Shown here piece after piece: positions 241 through 38,212 of a DNA stretch of 64,000 nt (within the stretch, counting starts at the first letter, position 1; every line of letters begins with the position of its first letter). This DNA is from Fusobacterium sp. JB019. GTDB taxonomy: Bacteria > Fusobacteriota > Fusobacteriia > Fusobacteriales > Fusobacteriaceae. The position numbers and the translations under genes are program-made. The DNA lies in contig JAUTCN010000003.1 of the NCBI GenBank assembly GCA_030673965.1, positions 1-64,000 on the forward strand, given 5' to 3'. The notes under the pieces are model-generated. The model saw only the letters and a program-made list of their open reading frames with translations. It was not told the origin of the DNA and did no database searches.

Positions 241-561
241 TTAATCTCCTTGATAATATTTAGGAATTATCTCTGGTTCCTCATCATAAATATCACTTTT
301 CCCACGTTTCATCTTCTCATCTTTTTCTAAATAATAATTACAATTTTTAGGAAGAGAACAATACATATCTTTTCCTGGATTTATTATTTTTCCTTCTTGA
401 ATAAAAACTGCTCCACTTATAAAGTCTAATATCCTTTGCTTTAAACCTTCTTCCACTTCAGAAAGATTAATATGTACAATTTTATCATTTTTTATATATT
501 CTACATACTTCATACAATCCTCAAATCTTGTAGGATTTAAAAAAACTATATCATATTCCAT
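241..561 (-). CDS. SepF-like protein, short form (DUF552 core only)
   Basis: A 106-residue protein that is almost entirely a SepF core (residues ~4-85). SepF binds FtsZ and anchors it to the membrane at the division site. The core here closely parallels the second SepF at 20760-21242: both have an F/Y-EDC-K motif, YIKNDK, and R-I-DF-SGA. Unlike that protein it has no N-terminal amphipathic membrane helix and no linker, so it may not bind membrane by itself. The start is supported by AAGGAGG seven bases before the ATG. It is the last gene of the folC-hprK-nrnA operon. Its C-terminus is acidic and proline-containing (residues 90-106). I call the family with confidence; whether it acts in division is inference. 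Confidence 0.8.
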   Translation of the reverse strand: MEYDIVFLNPTRFEDCMKYVEYIKNDKIVHINLSEVEEGLKQRILDFISGAVFIQEGKIINPGKDMYCSLPKNCNYYLEKDEKMKRGKSDIYDEEPEIIPKYYQGD

Positions 562-582: not shown

Positions 583-1524
583 TTATATATTTTCTAACAC
601 TTGAAATATTATATCTCTTTCTTCCATGTTAGTTGTAAAACCTGCTGCTCTTTTATGTCCTCCACCATCAAATAGACTAGCTATTTCATTTACATCTATT
701 TCTTTTTTACTTCTTAAGCTTCCCTTCATTTTCCCGTTAGGCTCTTCTTTCAAAAATAGAGCAACTTCACACCCTTCATATTCTAATAATTGTTCTACGA
801 TTCCTTCTGTATCATCTTTTTTGATTCCTTCTGTTTGAACAAAATAATCACTTAAAGTAAAATAAACAAACCTTCTATCCTCAATAATATTCATTTTAGA
901 TATGGCTATCCCCAAAACTTTCATTCTTCCTATACTTTTACTTTTATAAACAGAATTTATAATTTTATTTCTGTCTATTCCTATATCTATCAATTTACCA
1001 GCTATTTCAAAGGTACTTTTTGTTGTGCTTTCATATTTAAAGCTCCCTGTATCAGTAACTATTCCAGTATATAGAGCTTCCCCTATTTCTTTATCAATAT
1101 TTAATTTTAATCTATTTTTTATAACATCATACATAATTTCACAAGTAGAAGATTTATCTTCAACAATATTTAAATCTCCATAAAGTTCATTGCTTATATG
1201 ATGATCTATATTCACTAAAAATGCATCTTTTTTAAAATTAACAACCCTACCAACTCTTTTAAAAGTAGCTGAATCACAAGCTATCATCAAATCAACTTCA
1301 GGAGCATTTTCAATTTCTATATATTTTTCAACTTCGTCACTACCTGCTAAAAATTTCAAATCATAAGGAATATCATCCTCTATTATAAATCTAACTTTCT
1401 TTTCTGGAAAATTTTTAACTATAGCATTGTAAATTGCTAACCCACTTCCTATAGAATCTCCATCTGGATTAACATGAGATGAAATTAAAATATTTTCACT
1501 CTCTTTTAATTTTTCTAACAACAT
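583..1524 (-). CDS. nrnA: NrnA-type DHH phosphoesterase (oligoribonuclease / pAp phosphatase)
   Basis: A cytoplasmic DHH/DHHA1 enzyme that degrades nano-RNA and, in characterised relatives, dephosphorylates 3'-phosphoadenosine 5'-phosphate. The metal ligands are visible: H17-x3-D21-x-D23 (HVNPDGD), D84 (CDSA) and the DHH triad at 107-109. The C-terminal DHHA1 substrate site GGGHKRAAG is at ~287-295. The length of 313 residues is normal for the family. It sits 21 bp after the HPr kinase gene and 21 bp before the SepF-like gene, so it is co-transcribed with both. A good SD sequence (AAAGGGG) precedes the ATG. Confidence 0.92.
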   Translation of the reverse strand: MLLEKLKESENILISSHVNPDGDSIGSGLAIYNAIVKNFPEKKVRFIIEDDIPYDLKFLAGSDEVEKYIEIENAPEVDLMIACDSATFKRVGRVVNFKKDAFLVNIDHHISNELYGDLNIVEDKSSTCEIMYDVIKNRLKLNIDKEIGEALYTGIVTDTGSFKYESTTKSTFEIAGKLIDIGIDRNKIINSVYKSKSIGRMKVLGIAISKMNIIEDRRFVYFTLSDYFVQTEGIKKDDTEGIVEQLLEYEGCEVALFLKEEPNGKMKGSLRSKKEIDVNEIASLFDGGGHKRAAGFTTNMEERDIIFQVLENI

Positions 1525-1545: not shown

Positions 1546-3471
1546 CTATATCCCAAGTTCTTTTTTTAGTTTTTTATATGATTCTTCTGGATTATGTCCT
1601 GTTTTCTTGGCCATTAAATTCATAATAACTATTTCAACCATCGCTGCTGCATTTCTTCCAGAAGATAAATACATCTCTACTTTATAAATATCTTCTCCCA
1701 ATATTTTTTCAGTTGAACTTGAATCATCAACTGCCGTTAAATAATTATCATTTTCTTGTTCTTTCAATTCTATTATAACATCTATATTCTTTCTGATTCT
1801 TACAGAACTCATTCCGTATAAAGTTTTTATATCAATAATTCCTAACCCTCTAATTTCCATAAAATAAGGTAATTTAGCCGCACATCCTATAATTTCTCCA
1901 CTTGGAACTTTTTGGAATTTAACCATATCATCTGCAATAAGTCTATGCCCTCTATGAATTAGTTCTAAAGCTGTTTCACTTTTCCCTATTCCACTTTTCC
2001 CTTTAAGTAGCACTCCAAAACCATTCATCTCTAAGAAAACTCCATGTACAGTCATAGAAGGAGAAAAATATTTTTCCAAATAACTATTAAGATTAGCAAC
2101 TACATATGAAGGATTTGTTTCTTTTACTTTCAACAAAACTTTTTTATGCTTTTTAATCAAAGAAATTACTTCTTCTTTTATTTCATCACTTACATTTACA
2201 TCTCCACAAATTACTATTGCAGGAAAATCATATGTGAAATATTTTTCTAAATTTTTCTTTCTTTTTTTTGGACAAAGAGTTTTTAAATATTTTAACTCTA
2301 CATCAGTAAACAGTTGTAAACCTTTATTTTCATAGATACTCTCATCTAAATCAAAGATTCCAGAAAGAGCCATTGCTGGTTTATGGATACTGGTTGTAGT
2401 AATAAAACTCTTATGAGCATACTCTTCTCCAATTAAAACTTCAATATTATTGTCTTTTATAAACGTGGCAATTGATAATCTAGTCTCATCTTCCATTTCA
2501 TCACTCTCTCTTTTTCTTTTATTTTCTTGAATTAACTTTTTAGATTCATTTAAAAAATACAAAGCTGAATTTTTCCCTAATTCTTTCAATCTATAATCTA
2601 TTGCTGCTGTCTCTATTATCACTGCTAAATTTCTTCCTTTTCTAGCAGGAAGAGTTATTTTTTTCAACTTTCCTATCCCAACATCTTCATAAACTTCGTC
2701 TGCACCTAACCTATCATAAAACTTTTTTGTTTTCCATGTTTCTAATTCAACAATTAGGTTAATCTTTTTAGCTGGTCTTGTAGATTTTATCCCAAAATTA
2801 TTAGTTACATTAATATTTTCCTCTTTATCTGTCATTTCTAACATAAAATCTCTGTCAGGAGAAATTTTAGCTGCACTATTATAACCTACTATACCATTTG
2901 CTGTGTTTTTCAAAAGCATCCTTGCATCAGTTATGAATTTATGACCTCTTTCTAACATTTCAATAGCTGCACCTAATTTTAAATCTTGTTCTCCGCTTAA
3001 TAAAATCCCTATCCCGTATACATCTAACAATATGTGATCTTCTAGGATTATTTCTTCCCCCAAAACATTTTTCAAATAAATATTTAGTTCTCTAATGAAT
3101 TCTGTGGCTCTTTTTGAACATCTTAGTACAACTTTATTCTTTTTTTTAGCTCTTTCTATAAGTATTTCAATATGTTTTGCTCTAGAACTTAATATTAACA
3201 CTGGAAAAGGAAAGGATAAGTACCTATCTAAAATTTCAGTTTTTTGTTCTTCCTTCATTCGAAACAAATAATTATTTTCTTTTAAACCCATTATATGAAT
3301 AGCATTTTTTAATTCTTCTATCTCATCAGAAAAAAAACCTGTCAACTCGTATCCTATTCTATATATTTCATTTTCACTTATTCGCCTATCCAAATTTCCA
3401 TCTACAAGTATTTCTAAATTAAAATATTCTATTATTTCTCTTATTGAAATGCTTTTATTTTTTATATTCAC
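1546..3471 (-). CDS. hprK: Tandem-duplicated HPr kinase/phosphorylase (HprK-HprK fusion, first P-loop dead)
   Basis: HprK phosphorylates HPr of the PTS on Ser46 and reverses this by phosphorolysis; it is normally ~310 residues. This protein has 641 and contains two HprK-like halves joined by a charged linker (~310-332). The C-terminal half (~335-641) has an intact P-loop GKSGIGKSET (491-500), the ADD motif (513-515) and the family signature EIRGLGI (539-545). In the N-terminal half the aligned stretch at 160-169 reads GEQDLKLGAA, so the Walker lysine is Leu166. That half also lacks the EIRGLGI signature, yet keeps GRNLAVIIETAAIDYR (279-294), the usual HprK C-terminal motif, which is weaker in the second half (605 onwards). 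The start is a GTG after a G-rich SD. It lies 9 bp downstream of folC. I infer one catalytic and one regulatory or structural half. Confidence 0.85.
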   Translation of the reverse strand: MNIKNKSISIREIIEYFNLEILVDGNLDRRISENEIYRIGYELTGFFSDEIEELKNAIHIMGLKENNYLFRMKEEQKTEILDRYLSFPFPVLILSSRAKHIEILIERAKKKNKVVLRCSKRATEFIRELNIYLKNVLGEEIILEDHILLDVYGIGILLSGEQDLKLGAAIEMLERGHKFITDARMLLKNTANGIVGYNSAAKISPDRDFMLEMTDKEENINVTNNFGIKSTRPAKKINLIVELETWKTKKFYDRLGADEVYEDVGIGKLKKITLPARKGRNLAVIIETAAIDYRLKELGKNSALYFLNESKKLIQENKRKRESDEMEDETRLSIATFIKDNNIEVLIGEEYAHKSFITTTSIHKPAMALSGIFDLDESIYENKGLQLFTDVELKYLKTLCPKKRKKNLEKYFTYDFPAIVICGDVNVSDEIKEEVISLIKKHKKVLLKVKETNPSYVVANLNSYLEKYFSPSMTVHGVFLEMNGFGVLLKGKSGIGKSETALELIHRGHRLIADDMVKFQKVPSGEIIGCAAKLPYFMEIRGLGIIDIKTLYGMSSVRIRKNIDVIIELKEQENDNYLTAVDDSSSTEKILGEDIYKVEMYLSSGRNAAAMVEIVIMNLMAKKTGHNPEESYKKLKKELGI

Positions 3472-3480
3472 ATTACCCCC

Positions 3481-4734
3481 CTAAAATTTAAAGCTATTTT
3501 TAAATTTTTCACAAGTATAAAATGAACCACATACTATTATAATTTTTTTATTATCATCTTCCTCTAATACTTTTTTACTATATTCATAAGCTTCTGTCAT
3601 TTCTTCTTTTACTATTAGGTTTTTTCTATTGGTATGTTCTAACAACTCCTCACCTAAAAGTCCTCTTTTATTTTCCTTTAAAGATGTCAATACTATTGTA
3701 TCACTCATTTCTTGACATATTTCAATCATTTCATTAATTTTTTTATCTTTTAAAATAGAAACTACCATTATAACTTGATTTTTATCATATCCTTGAGAAA
3801 CTATTTTCTTTAAATTTTTCATTCCATCAATATTATGAGCGCCCTCTAAAACAGTCAACGGATCCTTTGAATATATTTCAAATCTACACTGCCAAAGAAC
3901 ATTTTCCATAGCTTCTTTAATTATTTTTCTCTCAATATTTAAAATTTTCAAAGCTTCATAAGCACATAAAAAATTCTTAACTTGATAATCTCCAAAAAGA
4001 GATAATGAGTAGTTTTCAGACTCTAATAAAATATTCGTTCTAAAATTTTTGAAATCTAACTTATAAACAACATCCTTATATTTTTCAACTACATTTATAA
4101 CTTCACTCTTAGGTTTCTTTTCATATATAGCTTTTAAAAAGTCACAATCATTATCTCCCACAATAACTTTACTTTTTTCTTTTATAATTCCTGCTTTCTC
4201 TTTAGCTATATCATATACATTATCTCCTAAATATTCAGTATGTTCAACTGATACGTTAGTTACAATTGAAATATCACCATCTGCAATATTAGTAGCATCA
4301 AAACGTCCTCCCATACCAACTTCTAGCACTGCATATTCCACTTTTTCTTCTGCAAAATATAAAAACATCATTGCTGTAGTCATTTCAAAAAAAGTTGGTT
4401 TTATATCTGAGTCTTTAAGAGCATTCTTTACTTTTGAATATATTTCAGCTATTTTTTCATCACTGATATCTTTTCCGTTAACTCTAATTCTTTCATTAAA
4501 TTTTATAATATGAGGAGAAGTATATTTTCCTATTTTTTTTCCTGAATGCAAAAGAGCATGCTCTATCATAGTTGAGGTTGAACCCTTCCCATTAGTACCA
4601 CTAACATGTATAATTTTATATTTATCTTGAGGGTTCCCTAATATGTCACATATTTTTTTTATATTCTCTAATCCTAACTTTATACCAAAAAAAGAATAAG
4701 AATATAATTCTTCTAAAAGTTCTTTAATTTCCAT
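3481..4734 (-). CDS. folC: Folylpolyglutamate synthase / dihydrofolate synthase
   Basis: An ATP-dependent Mur-ligase-family enzyme that adds glutamate to folates (and to dihydropteroate in bifunctional members). Visible motifs: the P-loop GTNGKGS (46-52), the TSPHI substrate loop (~77-81), the LEVGMGGRFDATN block (~137-149), VEHTEYLG (~163-170) with AGIIKE, and LEGAHN in the C-terminal domain. The length of 417 residues is normal. The ATG is preceded by GAGGAG. It is the first gene of a four-gene operon with hprK, nrnA and sepF, read from an extended -10 promoter at 4771-4779. Confidence 0.93.
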   Translation of the reverse strand: MEIKELLEELYSYSFFGIKLGLENIKKICDILGNPQDKYKIIHVSGTNGKGSTSTMIEHALLHSGKKIGKYTSPHIIKFNERIRVNGKDISDEKIAEIYSKVKNALKDSDIKPTFFEMTTAMMFLYFAEEKVEYAVLEVGMGGRFDATNIADGDISIVTNVSVEHTEYLGDNVYDIAKEKAGIIKEKSKVIVGDNDCDFLKAIYEKKPKSEVINVVEKYKDVVYKLDFKNFRTNILLESENYSLSLFGDYQVKNFLCAYEALKILNIERKIIKEAMENVLWQCRFEIYSKDPLTVLEGAHNIDGMKNLKKIVSQGYDKNQVIMVVSILKDKKINEMIEICQEMSDTIVLTSLKENKRGLLGEELLEHTNRKNLIVKEEMTEAYEYSKKVLEEDDNKKIIIVCGSFYTCEKFKNSFKF

Positions 4735-32501: not shown

Positions 32502-32589
32502 AAGAAAAACTAATTTTACAAATAACTACTAATAAAACTAACCATTTCCTAAAATAAGAATTCTCAATTTCTATTTCTGTACCTCTCTT

Positions 32590-32781
32590 CTTCTTTGTTA
32601 CTTTACTTCTTTGTTACTTTACTTCTTTGTTACTTTACTTCTTTGTTACTTTACTTCTTTGTTACTTTACCTCTTTGTTACTTTACCTCTTTGTTACTTT
32701 ACCTCTTTGTTACTTTACCTCTTTGTTACTTTACCTCTTTGTTACTTTACCTCTTTGTTACTTTACCTCTTTGTTACTTTA
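32590..32781. repeat. 16-bp minisatellite, 12 exact-period copies
   Basis: Twelve head-to-tail units. Copies 1-5 are CTTCTTTGTTACTTTA and copies 6-12 CCTCTTTGTTACTTTA, differing by one base; a degenerate 13th (ATTCTATTGTCACTTC-like) follows in phase. The period is not a multiple of three, so all three plus-strand frames stay open by chance and give leucine/tyrosine-rich false reading frames. Copy number is likely to vary between strains. Confidence 0.95.
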
Positions 32782-32905
32782 TTCTATTGTCACTTCCTTG
32801 TTACTTGTGATCTTTAATGGAATAAATATAATATTTATTATTTCATCGGACTCACCTCCAAAATAATCTTTATTTTTTAATCTTTATCCTCCTTCTTGTA
32901 ATACA

Positions 32906-32934
32906 TTTATACCCTATGTTTTTATTTTTGTCAA
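32906..32934 (-). promoter_or_regulatory. Strong promoter reading into the minisatellite
   Basis: Minus strand: -35 TTGACA (32929-32934), 17-bp spacer, -10 TATAAA (32906-32911). About 45 nt further on is GGAGGTGAGTCCG followed by ATG-AAA-TAA, a Shine-Dalgarno with only a minimal frame (GTG to TAA is five codons). The transcript would then cross the minisatellite towards the small-RNA region. Confidence 0.65.
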
Positions 32935-33014
32935 GAATTTTCAATGGTTTTTGTATATAATATTTCTATGCTAAATATACACTATATATATTATTTTTCT
33001 ATAATAAAAAAATA

Positions 33015-33039
33015 TCAGCACCTAGAACCTAGGCGCTGA
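33015..33039 (-). terminator. Terminator of the aminotransferase-DUF1846 operon
   Basis: An 11-bp stem TCAGCGCCTAG / CTAGGTGCTGA on the minus strand (one G-U pair), GTT-type loop, then a T7 run. Confidence 0.85.
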
Positions 33040-33061
33040 CACTAATATTTATTAATTTTTT

Positions 33062-34564
33062 TTATAAACCATTATAATATAAATTTTCACTTGAGAAAAC
33101 TGGATCACAAGTTATTTCGATTCCAATTTTACCCATTAACTGATCATCAGTTTTTCCTAAAATTGTTGTAGAATGAGCTTGACATCCTCTTAATTTATTT
33201 AATTCATTAATAGCTTTTGCAGCTCTTTCATCTGTAACTGCACATATTTTTAATGCTATTAAAACTTCTTCACAATTAAGCTGAGTATTTTTATTTCTGA
33301 AATTATTCATTTTTAATTCAATAATTGGTTTTGTTATTTCTTCAGATATTAAATGAATAGCATCATCTATTCCTGCACAATATTTTATAGCATTTAATAT
33401 TGCTGATGCTGGAGCGCACATTGTTTCAGATGCTTTTCCTGTAATAATTTTTCCATCTTCTAACTCTATCGCCACTGCTGATTTTTCTTCAAAACTATCA
33501 TTTAATTTTGAAAGTCTCTCTCTAGCAGCTACTAAAACTTTTCTATCTTCTTCTTTTAATCCAACTTCTTCCATAATAAGTTTAGCTCTTTCTAAAGATT
33601 TTTGATCAGCATGTCCTTTTTTATAATCACAACCTGTTTTTAAATATCTTCTTATTATTTCTTGATTAGAAGCTTCTCTTACTACAGCATCGTCTACAAT
33701 TCCAAATCCTACTCTATTTACACCCATATCAGTTGGAGATTTATATTCAGACTCTTTTCCTGTAATTTTTTCAATTATTCTTTTTAAAACAGGGAAAGCT
33801 TCAATATCTCTATTATAGTTTACTGATGTTTCACCATATGCTTCTAAATGGAAAGAATCTATTAAATTAACATCTTGTAAATCAACAGTTGCTGATTCAT
33901 AAGCTATATTTAATGGATGCTTTAAAGGTACGTTCCAAACAGGAAATGTTTCAAATTTTGAATATCCTGCTTTTTTCCCTCTTCTATCCTCATGATATAA
34001 TTGACTTAAACAAGTTGCTAGTTTTCCAGAACCTGGTCCTGGAGCTGTAACTACTACAATTGGTTTTGTTGTTTCTATATAAGGATTTTTTCCATATCCT
34101 TCTTCACTAACAATTGTATCAACTTCTGTTGGATAACCCTTTGTAGCTCTATGTTTATAAACTTTAATTCCTCTATGTTCTAATTTATTTATAAATACTT
34201 TTGTCGCTGGTTGATCATCAAATCTTGTAATTACAACACTGTTAACTTGTAAATCATAATTTCTTAAATCATCAATAAGTCTTAATACATCCATGTCATA
34301 TGTAATTCCAAAATCTCCTCTTATTTTATTTCTTTCAATATCTCCTGCATATACACAAATTATTACTTCTACTTTTTCTTTTAGTTTATGTAATAATTTT
34401 ATTTTTGCATTTTCATCAAAACCTGGAAGAACTCTTTTTGCATGTAAATCATAAAATAATTTTCCTCCAAACTCTAAATAAAGTTTATCATAGTTGTTAA
34501 CTCTTTCTAATATAAATTTTGATTGCTCCTCAAGATATTTATTGTGATCAAATCCTATTTTCAT
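33062..34564 (-). CDS. DUF1846 protein
   Basis: A 500-residue member of DUF1846, a conserved family of solved structure but undetermined function in Firmicutes, Fusobacteria and others. Full length, with the characteristic [14 protein letters not shown] start, the [13 protein letters not shown] strand, a nucleotide-binding-like [20 protein letters not shown] segment (~172-191) and a conserved CGAxD-like [10 protein letters not shown] region. It is cytoplasmic with no membrane segment. It lies 17 bp downstream of an aminotransferase and the two share a terminator. The P-loop-like GPGSGK suggests nucleotide or phosphate binding, which is inference. Confidence 0.88.
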
Positions 34565-34581
34565 TCTCTTCTCCTTATTAG

Positions 34582-35793
34582 TTATTCCTCTATTATTCCC
34601 ATTACATCTTTTCTATAAACTTTTAATGCCCTTCTTAATATTATCATTGCATTTTCAATGTCATCTACATTTGTACAAAATGAAAATCTAACCTCTTGTT
34701 CTCCTTTGCCCTCAGTTTGATAGAACCCTGGTCCTGGAGCAAGTAATATAGTTTGATTATCATATCTATATTCATTAAGTAACCATTTTGCAAATTTTTC
34801 TGCACTATCAACAGGTAATTTTGCAAAGGCATAAAATGCCCCGCAAGGTTTTGAACAAACAACTCCTGGCATTTTATTCAAATAATTAAATAAAAGATCT
34901 CTTCTATTTTTATATTTTTCTCTTACATCTTCTACATAACTATCCATTGTGTTAATTAAATTAGAAGCTGCATGTTGCTCTATTGTTGATACACAAAGTC
35001 TTGCTTGACAAAACTTTAAAATTTCTTTTAATAACTCTTCATTTTTAGTAGCTATAAGACCTATCCTAGCTCCGCAAGCACTATAATGCTTAGAAATACT
35101 ATCTACTAAAACCACTCTATCCTCTAATTCTGGAATGTGAGTAAATGAAAAATATTCAACATCATCATATATAAATTGTTTATAAACTTCATCTGCAATT
35201 ATATATATATCATATTTTTTAGCAATTTCACCTAACATATAAATTTCTTCTTTTGTGTAAACAGTTCCTGTTGGATTAACTGGATTAGAAATCATAATTG
35301 CTCTTGTTTTTTCATCTATCAAACTTTCAATAACCTCTCTACTTGGTAAATGAAACTTTGTTTCAATAGTTGTTTCTATTGGTTTTACTACAGCTCCTGC
35401 AAATTTGCAAAAACTCGAATAATTAGAATAGAAAGGTTCTGGAATTAAAACATTATCTCCTTCATTACAAATAGCCATCATTGTAAAAAAGATTGCTTCA
35501 CTTCCCCCTTGAGTTATTAAAATTTCATCAATACCAAAAAATGTTCCCATTTTTTCATAGGTAGCTTTAAAACTTTCTCTCAATTTTTCTAATCCTCTTG
35601 AGTCTGAATATTTTACAATTTTGTCACTAAAACTGTGTAGTGCTGTAAAAAATGTATCGGGAGTTACAATATTAGGTTGTCCTATATTTAGAGCGTAAAC
35701 TGTTACACCTTCTGCTTTAGCAGCGTCGGCTAGTGGTATCAACTTTCTTATTGGTGAATAGTTCATTGTTGATGCTCTTTGTGATATATGCAT
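34582..35793 (-). CDS. Class I/II PLP aminotransferase (aspartate-aminotransferase-like)
   Basis: A 403-residue fold-type I aminotransferase. [13 protein letters not shown] (~34-46) is the substrate-binding glycine turn, [11 protein letters not shown] the PLP phosphate site, [11 protein letters not shown] (~169-179) the conserved Asn, [13 protein letters not shown] the Asp/Tyr pair, and [15 protein letters not shown] the Schiff-base lysine. A C-terminal Arg (VRFSFC) would bind the substrate carboxylate. This subgroup acts on aspartate or aromatic/branched substrates; I cannot tell which. Read from an extended -10 (35851-35859), upstream of the DUF1846 gene. Confidence 0.85.
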
Positions 35794-35850
35794 ATTTCTC
35801 CTCCTTAATTTTTTAATTTACTTAAATATTCTTTTTTTTAATTACTAGAT

Positions 35851-35859
35851 ATTATATCA
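35851..35859 (-). promoter_or_regulatory. Extended -10 promoter for the aminotransferase-DUF1846 operon
   Basis: Minus strand TGATATAAT, 58 bp before the ATG, preceded by AT-rich sequence without a clear -35. Confidence 0.55.
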
Positions 35860-35907
35860 TATATTCCATATAAATATAAAGATGATTTTTAAAAAATTTA
35901 ATAATTA

Positions 35908-35947
35908 TAAAAAGTGAATTAAACATCAAAATTTCAATTCACTTTTA
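35908..35947 (-). terminator. Terminator of the thiD-thiE-thiM operon
   Basis: TAAAAGTGAATT pairs with AATTCACTTTTTA around a 15-nt loop, with a moderate U-run on the minus strand. Confidence 0.65.
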
Positions 35948-35962
35948 ATTATTTTAATTTAT

Positions 35963-36775
35963 TTAGTTTAGTTCTACTTTAATGTTACTGTTGAAATTTT
36001 CTGATGTCATATTATAAACACTATCGATTATTCCAACTCTTAAACTAGCATTACCTTGTCCCTCACTTAATCTAGACTCAGCTATTTCTCCTGAAATTCC
36101 CATGATAGAAACTCCTACTGTAGCTGCTAAAAAATTATCTTGTTGTGCAGCACAAGCACTTCCTATAAGCGAAGCCGTCATACATCCTGTTCCAGTAACC
36201 TTTCCAAGAATAGCTGTCCCATTATTTATTTTAGAAATTCTTTTACCATCTGTTACAATATCTTGCTTTCCTGTTAAAGCAATTACAGTATTTAATTTTT
36301 TTGCTAAATCTAAAGCTATTTCATCTGCATTTTCTAATGCTTCAACAGAGTCCACTCCTCTATTATTTTTATTTTTTATTCCTGCAATAGATTTTATTTC
36401 AGCCATATTTCCTTTTATAACTGCAAAATCAACATTTTCTATTAATTTTCCAACTAGTTCCATCCTAGCTTTTGATGCCCCTGCTCCTACTGGATCTAAA
36501 ATAACTGGTTTCCCTAATTTATTTGCTATTTTACCAGCTTTAACTACCATTGTCTTCATAGATTTATCCATTGTTCCTATATTTAAGACTAATGCTGATG
36601 AAAAAGAAAGTATATCCTCTAATTCTTCTTCGCAAAATGACATTAAAGGAGAAGCTCCTAAAGCTAAAGTTATATTAGCACAATCATTTATTGTTACCAT
36701 ATTTGTTATATGAAAAACAATTGGCTGTTTTTCTCTTATCTTTGTAATTATATTTCCTAATATTTTTTCTTCCAT
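35963..36775 (-). CDS. thiM: Hydroxyethylthiazole kinase
   Basis: A 270-residue ribokinase-like enzyme that phosphorylates the thiazole moiety for thiamine salvage. Visible: FHITNMVTINDCAN (~21-34), LDPVGAGASK (~118-127), IKGNMAEIK (~139-147) and the anion-hole/catalytic motif GTGCMTAS (~198-205; the cysteine is characteristic of ThiM). Last gene of thiD-thiE-thiM. A salvage-only set: no thiC, thiG, thiF or thiS is present here. Confidence 0.95.
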   Translation of the reverse strand: MEEKILGNIITKIREKQPIVFHITNMVTINDCANITLALGASPLMSFCEEELEDILSFSSALVLNIGTMDKSMKTMVVKAGKIANKLGKPVILDPVGAGASKARMELVGKLIENVDFAVIKGNMAEIKSIAGIKNKNNRGVDSVEALENADEIALDLAKKLNTVIALTGKQDIVTDGKRISKINNGTAILGKVTGTGCMTASLIGSACAAQQDNFLAATVGVSIMGISGEIAESRLSEGQGNASLRVGIIDSVYNMTSENFNSNIKVELN

Positions 36776-36777
36776 AT

Positions 36778-37413
36778 TTACTCTCCTTTTATATAAGATA
36801 ATAAAACTTCACTGGCTTTTTTTATATCTTTTTTCCCTAATATTTCAGATATTATAGCTACTCCATCTGTCCCAGTCTTCATTACTTCTTTTATATTATT
36901 TAAATGTATACCTCCAATTGCAACATTTGGAATATTTATATAATCTACAATCTTTTTAAGTCCTATTATTTCAAGAGGTTTATTTATATCATCTTTTGTT
37001 GTTGTAAAGAATATTGTTCCTATCCCCACATAATCAGCTCCACCTTCTTCAGCTAATCTAGCTTCTTCAATATTCCCAACTGAGACACCTATTATTTTAT
37101 CTTGTCCTAGTATTTTTCTTGCATATTTTAAATCATTATCACTTTGTCCTATATGAACCCCTGTTGCATCAACTAATTTAGCAATCTCAATATTATCATT
37201 TATAATAAAAGGAATATTGTACTTGTCTGTTATTTTTTTTAATTCTCTTGCTATTTTTAAAAATTCTTCATCACTGATATGTTTTTCTCTTAATTGTACT
37301 ATAGTTGTTCCACCTAAAATACTCTCTTCAACTGCTTTATTTAAATCTCTTCCACTTAAAATATCTCTATCAGTAACTAAATACATAGAATAATCTATAT
37401 CTTTCTTATTCAT
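36778..37413 (-). CDS. thiE: Thiamine-phosphate synthase
   Basis: A 211-residue TIM-barrel enzyme joining HMP-pyrophosphate and thiazole phosphate. Motifs: YLVTDRDI, TIVQLREKHISD (~36-47), FIINDNIEIA, GVHIGQSD (~90-97), GVSVGN, DYVGIGTIFFTTTK (~127-140) and VAIGGIHLNNI (~165-175). Its start overlaps the 3' end of thiD by 8 bp, and thiM follows within 3 bp. Confidence 0.95.
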   Translation of the reverse strand: MNKKDIDYSMYLVTDRDILSGRDLNKAVEESILGGTTIVQLREKHISDEEFLKIARELKKITDKYNIPFIINDNIEIAKLVDATGVHIGQSDNDLKYARKILGQDKIIGVSVGNIEEARLAEEGGADYVGIGTIFFTTTKDDINKPLEIIGLKKIVDYINIPNVAIGGIHLNNIKEVMKTGTDGVAIISEILGKKDIKKASEVLLSYIKGE

Positions 37414-38212
37414 ATCTTACTCCTGCTTTTTTATATAAATCTACAAAATGTCCAACTGGTCCAACTCCATGACCTATTGGAAATGAATTTCTAATAGCTT
37501 CTGTTATATATTCTTTGCCTAGTCTAACACTTTCTTCTATAGAAAAGCCCTTTCCTATTAAAGATGCAATTGTAGAAGATAAAGTACATCCTGTCCCATG
37601 AGTATTTTTAGTGTCTATTCTACTTCCTTCAAACTTTACTACTTTTCCATCTTTTAAAACAAGAACATCTGTACAATTGTCAAGTCTATGTCCACCCTTC
37701 ATTAAAACATTTTTAGCCCCTAATTTTTGAATTTTTCTAGATGCTTCTATCATATCCTCTTCATTTTCTATTTTCATTCCAGCTAAAATTTCTCCTTCTG
37801 GAATATTAGGAGTTACTAATTCTCCTAAAGAAATAAATTTCTTTAAAGCTTCTATTGCTTCATCTTTTAATAATTTATATTCACTTTTAGAAACCATAAC
37901 TGGATCAATAACTATGTTTTTAGCTTTATATTTTTTTAAAGCTTTTCCAATAGTTTCTATTATTTCACTACTAGATAACATTCCTATTTTAACAGAATCT
38001 ACATCTATATCTTCAAATATAACTTCTATCTGCTTTTCTATTATCTCTTTTGAAATCTCTTGCACTCCAAAAACTCCCATTGTATTTTGAGCTGTCACTG
38101 CAGTGATTATACTCATTCCATAAACACCCATAGCACTCATAGCTTTTAAATCTGCCTGAATCCCAGCTCCTCCACAACTATCTGACCCTGCAATTGTTAA
38201 AACTTTTTTCAT
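37406..38212 (-). CDS. thiD: Hydroxymethylpyrimidine (phosphate) kinase
   Basis: A 268-residue ribokinase-family enzyme making HMP-pyrophosphate. Starts with TIAGSDSCGGAGIQADLKA, has VIDPVMVSKS, VLMKGGH and the GTGCTLSSTIAS anion hole, and ends with the usual PIGHGVGPVGH. The start is placed at the ATG at 38212, six bases after TGGAGG; the open frame extends to 38251, but that would read through the ribosome site. First gene of the salvage operon. Its leader from the extended -10 at 38261 is only ~40 nt, too short for a TPP riboswitch. Confidence 0.94.
   Translation of the reverse strand: MKKVLTIAGSDSCGGAGIQADLKAMSAMGVYGMSIITAVTAQNTMGVFGVQEISKEIIEKQIEVIFEDIDVDSVKIGMLSSSEIIETIGKALKKYKAKNIVIDPVMVSKSEYKLLKDEAIEALKKFISLGELVTPNIPEGEILAGMKIENEEDMIEASRKIQKLGAKNVLMKGGHRLDNCTDVLVLKDGKVVKFEGSRIDTKNTHGTGCTLSSTIASLIGKGFSIEESVRLGKEYITEAIRNSFPIGHGVGPVGHFVDLYKKAGVRYE

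What the first reader, a model, noticed from the sequence alone, without database searches (positions are those of the whole stretch)
1546..3471. Tandem HPr kinase with one catalytic and one P-loop-dead half
The 641-residue product holds two HprK-like domains. The C-terminal half has an intact P-loop (491-500) and the EIRGLGI signature. The N-terminal half has GEQDLKLGAA at the P-loop position (Walker lysine replaced by Leu166) and no EIRGLGI, yet keeps the HprK C-terminal GRNLAVIIETAA motif that is eroded in the other half. HprK normally works as a hexamer of one ~310-residue chain, so a covalent active/inactive dimer could have a new oligomeric form, a new allosteric site, or separated kinase and phosphorylase roles. 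Its operon (folC, nrnA, SepF-like) has no PTS gene.
Basis: partly seen in the sequence, partly recalled or inferred. Interest (0 to 1): 0.7.

Follow-up and report, generated by a model that had tools for sequence, protein, structure and literature searches.

The report
Tandem HPr kinase with complementary halves
This bacterial sugar-control enzyme is two copies of the HPr kinase joined in one chain, and across the whole phylum one copy has kept only the ATP-handling half of the shared active site and the other only the half lent to its neighbour, which suggests one working site per pair instead of two.

Summary
Window 1546-3471 (minus strand) is one 641-residue ORF with two complete HprK modules, and it is the only hprK in the genome. 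It is not an assembly join: 69 of 98 Fusobacteriota genomes carry HprK, nearly always as two modules in one ~610-675-residue ORF. The fusion was noted for Fusobacterium nucleatum in 2008 (PMC2405797). I found no published account of how the halves have diverged, in a library that lacks most subscription papers. Residues that HprK uses in its own active site (His, P-loop, Asp-Asp, EIRGLGI) are kept only in the C-half. Residues that HprK lends to a neighbouring subunit's site (Trp, the DRLG loop arginine, K3-loop proline, C-terminal-helix positions) are kept only in the N-half. Of near-invariant positions the split is 13:0 against 0:7. One relative has shrunk to 269 residues and keeps just these two sets. 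HprK co-occurs with an HPr of the Ser46-target type in 68 of 69 genomes; that motif is absent from all 29 HprK-less genomes. Most likely: an HPr-Ser46 kinase/phosphorylase whose active sites form only between an N-half and a C-half. Geometry and both activities are inferred, not shown. New variant of a known kind.

The parts
1546..3471 (-). Tandem HPr kinase/phosphorylase gene, 641 aa, GTG start at 3469-3471, stop at 1546-1548
   Evidence: the only PF07475 gene in the genome
2518..3471 (-). N-half (residues 1-318): complete HprK module, ATP site dead, neighbour-donated (trans) elements intact
2971..2994 (-). Degenerate P-loop of the N-half, residues 160-167 GEQDLKLG: one residue shorter, Ser and Glu lost, a Lys/Arg retained
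2704..2736 (-). Trans element 1 in the N-half: W246 and the disordered loop with D253-R254-L255-G256 (R254 lines up with the catalytically important loop Arg245 of single HprK)
   Evidence: 98-100% conserved in N-halves, 0-7% in C-halves; role from PMC9399212
2629..2649 (-). Trans element 2 in the N-half: K3 loop, residues 275-281 PARKGRN
   Evidence: P275, G279 and R280 invariant; K3 loop of an adjacent subunit fills the site next to the P-loop in HprK (PMC9399212)
2506..2568 (-). Trans element 3 in the N-half: C-terminal helix, residues 302-322; F306 and I314 invariant
2473..2505 (-). Linker between halves, residues 323-333
   Evidence: variable, gap-rich columns; low model confidence
1549..2472 (-). 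C-half (residues 334-641): complete HprK module with intact ATP site, trans elements largely lost
2041..2046 (-). Cis element: H476-G477 (lines up with His140 of single HprK)
   Evidence: 100% in 43 C-halves; His in 0% of N-halves
1975..2001 (-). Cis element: P-loop, residues 491-499 GKSGIGKSE
   Evidence: G491, S493, G496, K497, S498 and E499 invariant, G494 95%
1927..1932 (-). Cis element: catalytic Asp pair D514-D515
   Evidence: 100% in C-halves; D515 position Asp in 12% of N-halves
1837..1857 (-). Cis element: HprK signature EIRGLGI, residues 539-545
   Evidence: E539, R541, G542 and G544 100% in C-halves, 2-23% in N-halves
3481..4734 (-). folC, upstream neighbour in the same operon
   Evidence: TIGR01499 349 bits; order conserved in Fusobacteriaceae
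583..1524 (-). nrnA-like DHH/DHHA1 phosphoesterase, downstream neighbour
241..561 (-). SepF-family gene, last gene of the cluster
   Evidence: PF04472 63 bits

Best explanation
It is the HPr(Ser46) kinase/phosphorylase of this fusobacterium, and it has undergone complementary degeneration. In ordinary HprK each HPr sits between two subunits: one supplies the catalytic site (His, P-loop, Asp pair, EIRGLGI), the other supplies the loop arginine, the K3 loop and the C-terminal helix. Here the C-half has become the catalytic partner and the N-half the partner that lends the loop arginine, K3 loop and helix. An N-half paired with a C-half makes one working site; the reciprocal site is dead. Three chains would then form a pseudo-hexamer with three active sites, phosphorylating and dephosphorylating Ser46 of the NGKSIMGLM-type HPr encoded elsewhere. 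Shown by sequence: two full HprK modules, the split of the two residue sets, its conservation across the phylum, purifying selection on both halves, and co-occurrence with that HPr. Inferred: that N meets C at the active site, whether within one chain or between chains, the pseudo-hexamer, and both enzyme activities.
For: Split: of CTD positions at least 95% conserved in 72 single HprKs, 13 are kept only in C-halves (0 only in N) in the catalytic core and 7 only in N-halves (0 only in C) in the tail; Fisher p 1.3e-5, though columns are not independent (raw table). Across 43 tandem proteins the invariant residues are H476, P-loop, D514/D515 and EIRGLGI in the C-half, and R254-L255-G256, P275, R294, G299, F306 and I314 in the N-half. 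Literature: HPr is held by the catalytic site of one subunit and the C-terminal helix of the next, with Arg245 from the other subunit's loop (PMC9399212), and the K3 loop comes from an adjacent subunit. Natural minimal form: P0002 (L081:2863-3672) is 269 aa; it lost both N-terminal domains and most of the first core but keeps W-DRLG-P-GR and then HG, P-loop, DD, EVRGLGI. Distribution. Purifying selection: dN/dS 0.056 for the N-half and 0.060 for the C-half, window gene versus nearest relative; dS near 1, so rough. Substrate: SIMG-type HPr in 67 of 69 HprK+ genomes by pattern, plus G097 by reading (DAKSIMG), and the motif in 0 of 29 HprK- genomes. AF2 models are confident overall, pTM 0.72 for the tandem and 0.84 for P0002.
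Against: No coordinates or complex prediction were available, so the N-to-C contact at the active site was not measured. The C-half keeps GRN of its K3 loop, so its tail is not wholly lost. The N-core is itself strongly conserved (dN/dS 0.028), which could mean it binds something. Complementary patterns could also arise if the trans residues acted within one subunit; the claim that they act across subunits rests on published HprK structures as described in a paper I read, not on coordinates I measured. The claim also needs each N/C pair to be reciprocal neighbours; if donors ran cyclically round a trimer the scheme would fail. G067 is 88% complete in about 100 contigs, and its short ORF was seen once.
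Confidence: 0.78

Rival explanations
1. The N-half is a regulatory or scaffolding pseudokinase. It binds an effector (phosphate, sugar phosphate or nucleotide) at its altered P-loop and tunes the C-half, which is catalytically self-sufficient with its own chain-to-chain contacts.
For: The dead N-core is under strong purifying selection (dN/dS 0.028) and keeps G153, G155, G160, H177, G196, G227 and a Lys/Arg at the loop in about 93% of sequences. The C-half keeps GRN and E613.
Against: It does not explain why C-halves throughout the phylum lost Trp, the DRLG arginine, the K3 proline and helix residues that are near-invariant in 72 single HprKs, nor why the minimal G067 protein dropped most of the N-core but kept exactly those residues.
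Confidence: 0.12
2. Kinase and phosphorylase roles have been separated: the C-half phosphorylates HPr and the N-half (intact PxRxGRN K3 region, linked to dephosphorylation) removes the phosphate.
For: The K3 loop is linked to dephosphorylation (PMC9399212) and is best preserved in the N-half.
Against: The same paper places both activities in one active site. The N-half lacks the His, P-loop, second Asp and EIRGLGI in nearly all 43 sequences, so it has no complete site of its own.
Confidence: 0.04
3. Decaying or artefactual duplication: a join of two adjacent hprK genes, or a pseudogene half.
For: None found beyond loss of one P-loop. A few relatives are fragmented in draft genomes (G056, G060, G061).
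Against: The same architecture in all 7 genus members and across at least four families, with dN/dS near 0.06 in both halves.
Confidence: 0.01
4. The enzyme no longer acts on HPr but on another protein substrate.
For: The operon has no PTS gene.
Against: Presence and absence of HprK track an HPr with the Ser46 target motif across 98 genomes, including within one family where 5 genomes have both and the rest have neither.
Confidence: 0.05

Closest known systems
HPr kinase/phosphorylase HprK/P of Bacillota (structures 1KO7 S. xylosus, 1JB1/1KKL/1KKM L. casei, 1KNX M. pneumoniae)
   Same: Same NTD+CTD fold; C-half aligns to 1ko7 with Z 25.3, rmsd 3.3 A over 284 residues; same cis residues; target HPr motif present in the genome
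   Different: Two modules in one chain; the cis and trans residue sets are divided between the modules; the N-terminal-domain Arg that is 98% conserved in singles is largely lost in both halves (0% of N-halves, 16% of C-halves)
Tandem HPrK of Fusobacterium nucleatum noted by Comas et al. 2008 (PMC2405797)
   Same: The same fusion of two HPrK domains, reported there in one sentence
   Different: The passages read report neither phylum-wide conservation, the split of active-site halves, the 269-aa form nor the HPr co-occurrence; supplementary files were not readable
Alpha-proteobacterial and Coxiella short HprK (CTD only, 3TQF)
   Same: Shows that the CTD alone can exist without an NTD; P0002 likewise lacks NTDs
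   Different: Those are single CTDs with all residues in one copy; P0002 is a reduced first CTD plus a full second one
F1-ATPase alpha/beta ring (from general knowledge, not tested here)
   Same: Works-like analogy only: catalytic and non-catalytic homologues alternate, the latter donating an arginine to the active site
   Different: Unrelated function, separate chains

Membership tests
HPr(Ser) kinase/phosphorylase (HprK/P) | Sequence family match over the curated cut-off | tested here: met
   TIGR00679 448.8 bits against 240; PF07475 and PF02603 twice each
HPr(Ser) kinase/phosphorylase (HprK/P) | Walker A GxxGxGKSE, Asp pair, EIRGLGI signature | tested here: met
   Present in the C-half, not in the N-half
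HPr(Ser) kinase/phosphorylase (HprK/P) | Disordered-loop arginine (DRLG), K3 loop PxRPGRN, C-terminal helix | tested here: met
   Present in the N-half (PARKGRN); DRLG and the proline lost in the C-half
HPr(Ser) kinase/phosphorylase (HprK/P) | Substrate HPr with Ser46 in the genome | tested here: met
   L010 1477-1746 minus: GLHARP and NGKSIMGLM; 68 of 69 HprK+ genomes
HPr(Ser) kinase/phosphorylase (HprK/P) | Single ~310-residue chain forming a homohexamer with six equal sites | tested here: not met
   The single-chain part fails: 641 residues with two unequal modules. Oligomeric state itself was not testable here. This makes it a divergent variant, not a typical member
HPr(Ser) kinase/phosphorylase (HprK/P) | ATP- or PPi-dependent Ser46 kinase and phosphorylase activity | not testable with these tools
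   Needs purified protein
HPr(Ser) kinase/phosphorylase (HprK/P) | CcpA partner for catabolite repression | tested here: inconclusive
   LacI-family relatives of CcpA present, best 173.7 bits, none over the CcpA cut-off of 442

The most novel reading that the evidence does not exclude
The fused protein works only as obligate N:C pairs with three composite sites per pseudo-hexamer, which would make half-of-the-sites asymmetry in HprK permanent and hard-wired. In the reduced G067 form a single 269-residue chain would be a self-contained, possibly non-hexameric, one-site HPr kinase.
Probability: 0.4. Interest if true: 0.68.

Novelty: new variant of a known kind. Interest (0 to 1): 0.6.

Why it matters
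HprK is a model for bifunctional, hexameric metabolic sensors, but its cooperativity and the kinase/phosphorylase switch are hard to dissect because every subunit is both donor and acceptor of active-site parts. In Fusobacteriota evolution seems to have separated donor from acceptor in one polypeptide. That lets each contribution be mutated alone, fixes stoichiometry, and tests whether six sites, or communication between them, are needed for regulation. It would also describe catabolite control in a phylum with little work on HprK in the literature I could search, and the 269-residue form could be an unusually small HPr kinase system to study.

Tried and rejected
First genome-contig scan with the single protein found nothing; with the alignment it worked. 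Sequencing join: rejected. Two unrelated origins of the halves: not supported. Each half is one clade; N+C do not group in the larger tree, which has long-branch rows, and group with support 74 once these are left out, so a single duplication is likely but not shown. Tandem forms outside the phylum: none in 72 other HprK ORFs from several phyla, a limited sample. L102 looked longer at first but is a normal 315-residue ORF. HprK tracking the divergent Enzyme I: rejected, since several HprK+ genomes lack it. The fold search on the tandem and on P0002 gave PEP carboxykinase alignments, many of which begin at the N-half C-terminal helix (303-307 in P0001, 103 in P0002). That is a weak hint that this helix packs on the C-half core, but only range ends are given, so I do not count it as evidence. 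Literature searches for a description of the halves found only the 2008 note; most subscription papers are not in the library.

Full report
What is there. Window 1546-3471, minus strand, is one open reading frame of 641 codons with a GTG start. Pfam finds the HPr kinase N-terminal and C-terminal domains twice each. NCBI's HPr(Ser) kinase/phosphatase equivalog model scores 448.8 bits against a cut-off of 240, best stretch in residues 333-633. It is the only gene of the family in the genome. The C-half aligns with the S. xylosus structure 1KO7, Z 25.3 over 284 residues of the model.

It is not an artefact. All seven genomes of the genus carry the whole protein at 60-100% identity. In the phylum, 69 of 98 genomes have the family, nearly all as two matches in one frame of about 610-675 codons. 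The exceptions are genes cut by contig ends or broken in draft genomes, plus one reduced gene described below. Most genomes of one family (f4) have none. In 72 readable HprK frames from other phyla the protein was a single module. Comas et al. [quoted passage not shown]

The halves are complementary. I aligned 43 N-halves, 43 C-halves and 72 single HprKs and took every C-terminal-domain position at least 95% conserved in the singles. In the catalytic core, 13 such positions are kept only in the C-half and none only in the N-half. These include His476, Gly477, the P-loop Ser/Gly/Gly/Ser/Glu, Asp515, and Glu539, Arg541, Gly542 and Gly544 of EIRGLGI. In the tail, 7 are kept only in the N-half and none only in the C-half: Trp246, Tyr252, Arg254, Gly256, Pro275, Ile285 and Ala290. 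Fisher p is 1.3e-5; neighbouring columns are not independent, so the number is indicative. Several core and tail positions are kept in both, among them the K3-loop Gly and Asn. In the tandem alignment R254-L255-G256, P275, R294, G299, F306 and I314 are invariant in the N-half.

Why these two sets. A paper summarising the L. casei HprK/P-HPr crystal structure states that two adjacent subunits hold one HPr. One uses its catalytic site; the other uses its C-terminal helix and Arg245 of its disordered loop. It also states that kinase and phosphorylase activity share one site (PMC9399212), and that the K3 loop of an adjacent subunit sits beside the P-loop. The set kept in the C-half is the acting subunit's own; the set kept in the N-half is the one lent to a neighbour. 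So neither half alone should make a site, but an N-half beside a C-half should. The mapping of Arg254 to Arg245 is mine, by alignment to the conserved DRLG motif.

A natural reduction. In genome G067 the gene (L081:2863-3672) codes for 269 residues. Both N-terminal domains and most of the first core are gone. What is left is NW...DRLG...PIKKGRD...LIEVA, then HSVHGV, GKSGVGKSE, ADD and EVRGLGI. Residues invariant in an alignment with 24 full-length proteins are R64-L65-G66, P77, G81-R82, E89, G101, F108 and I116 from the first set and H132-G133, the P-loop, D170-D171 and E196/R198-G199/G201-I202 from the second. This is one sequence from an 88% complete draft genome, so an assembly fault is not excluded, but flanking mtnN and nrnA are in the usual order.

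Selection. Between the window gene and its nearest relative (89% identical), dN/dS is 0.056 in the N-half and 0.060 in the C-half; the dead N-core is lowest at 0.028. Synonymous distances are near or above 1, so these are rough, but neither half is decaying.

Substrate. The genome has two HPr genes. One carries GLHARP and NGKSIMGLM, the Ser46 target context; the other carries KGTSLLKLL. A DNA pattern for the SIMG type matches 67 of 98 genomes, all of them HprK carriers, and none of the 29 genomes without HprK. Of the two HprK carriers without a match, G097 has DAKSIMG, and G060 is a 76% complete draft with no HPr found at all. Within family f4, the five HprK carriers all have it and the others do not. 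The divergent Enzyme I gene next to this HPr does not track HprK. The hprK operon is mtnN-folC-hprK-nrnA, often followed by sepF, in most Fusobacteriaceae, without PTS genes.

Structure predictions. AlphaFold2 gave mean pLDDT 84.8 and pTM 0.72 for the tandem, and 84.5 and 0.84 for the 269-residue protein. The pTM values suggest that the parts have a defined mutual arrangement, but no coordinates could be inspected, so the N-to-C contact was not measured.

Origin. Each half forms one well-supported clade, so the divergence predates the sampled families. Whether N and C are each other's closest relatives is only weakly supported (74, not recovered).

Conclusion. The finding is real. Its best explanation is an HPr kinase/phosphorylase whose two fused copies have split the shared active site between them. 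Shown: architecture, split, conservation, selection, co-occurrence. Inferred: pairing geometry, three sites per pseudo-hexamer, activities.

Noticed in passing
L081:2863-3672 (+): A 269-residue reduced tandem HprK keeping only the donated and catalytic residue sets; seen in one genome of the phylum.
   Followed up: yes
L010:1477-1746 (-) and L252:1480-3297 (-): The Ser46-type HPr gene lies next to a second, divergent Enzyme I (470 bits); the other HPr lies near the standard Enzyme I (708 bits). Several HprK+ genomes lack the divergent Enzyme I but keep this HPr, so how that HPr is charged at His15 there is open.
   Followed up: partly
window 2971-2994 (N-half residues 160-167): The dead P-loop keeps a Lys or Arg in about 93% of N-halves, and the dead core has the lowest dN/dS; it may still bind an anion.
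   Followed up: no
window 2320-2322 and 3301-3303 (residues 384 and 57, N-terminal domains): An Arg 98% conserved in single HprKs is lost in all 43 N-halves and most C-halves, so N-terminal-domain contacts may differ.
   Followed up: no
G000 contig C5, about 32504-38083 and 166816-172395: CcpA-like hits occur in mirror pairs with identical scores whose coordinates sum to 204899, so the contig looks like a large perfect inverted duplication, perhaps an assembly artefact.
   Followed up: no
family f4 genomes: HprK and the Ser46-type HPr are missing together in most genomes of one family, while another HPr stays.
   Followed up: yes
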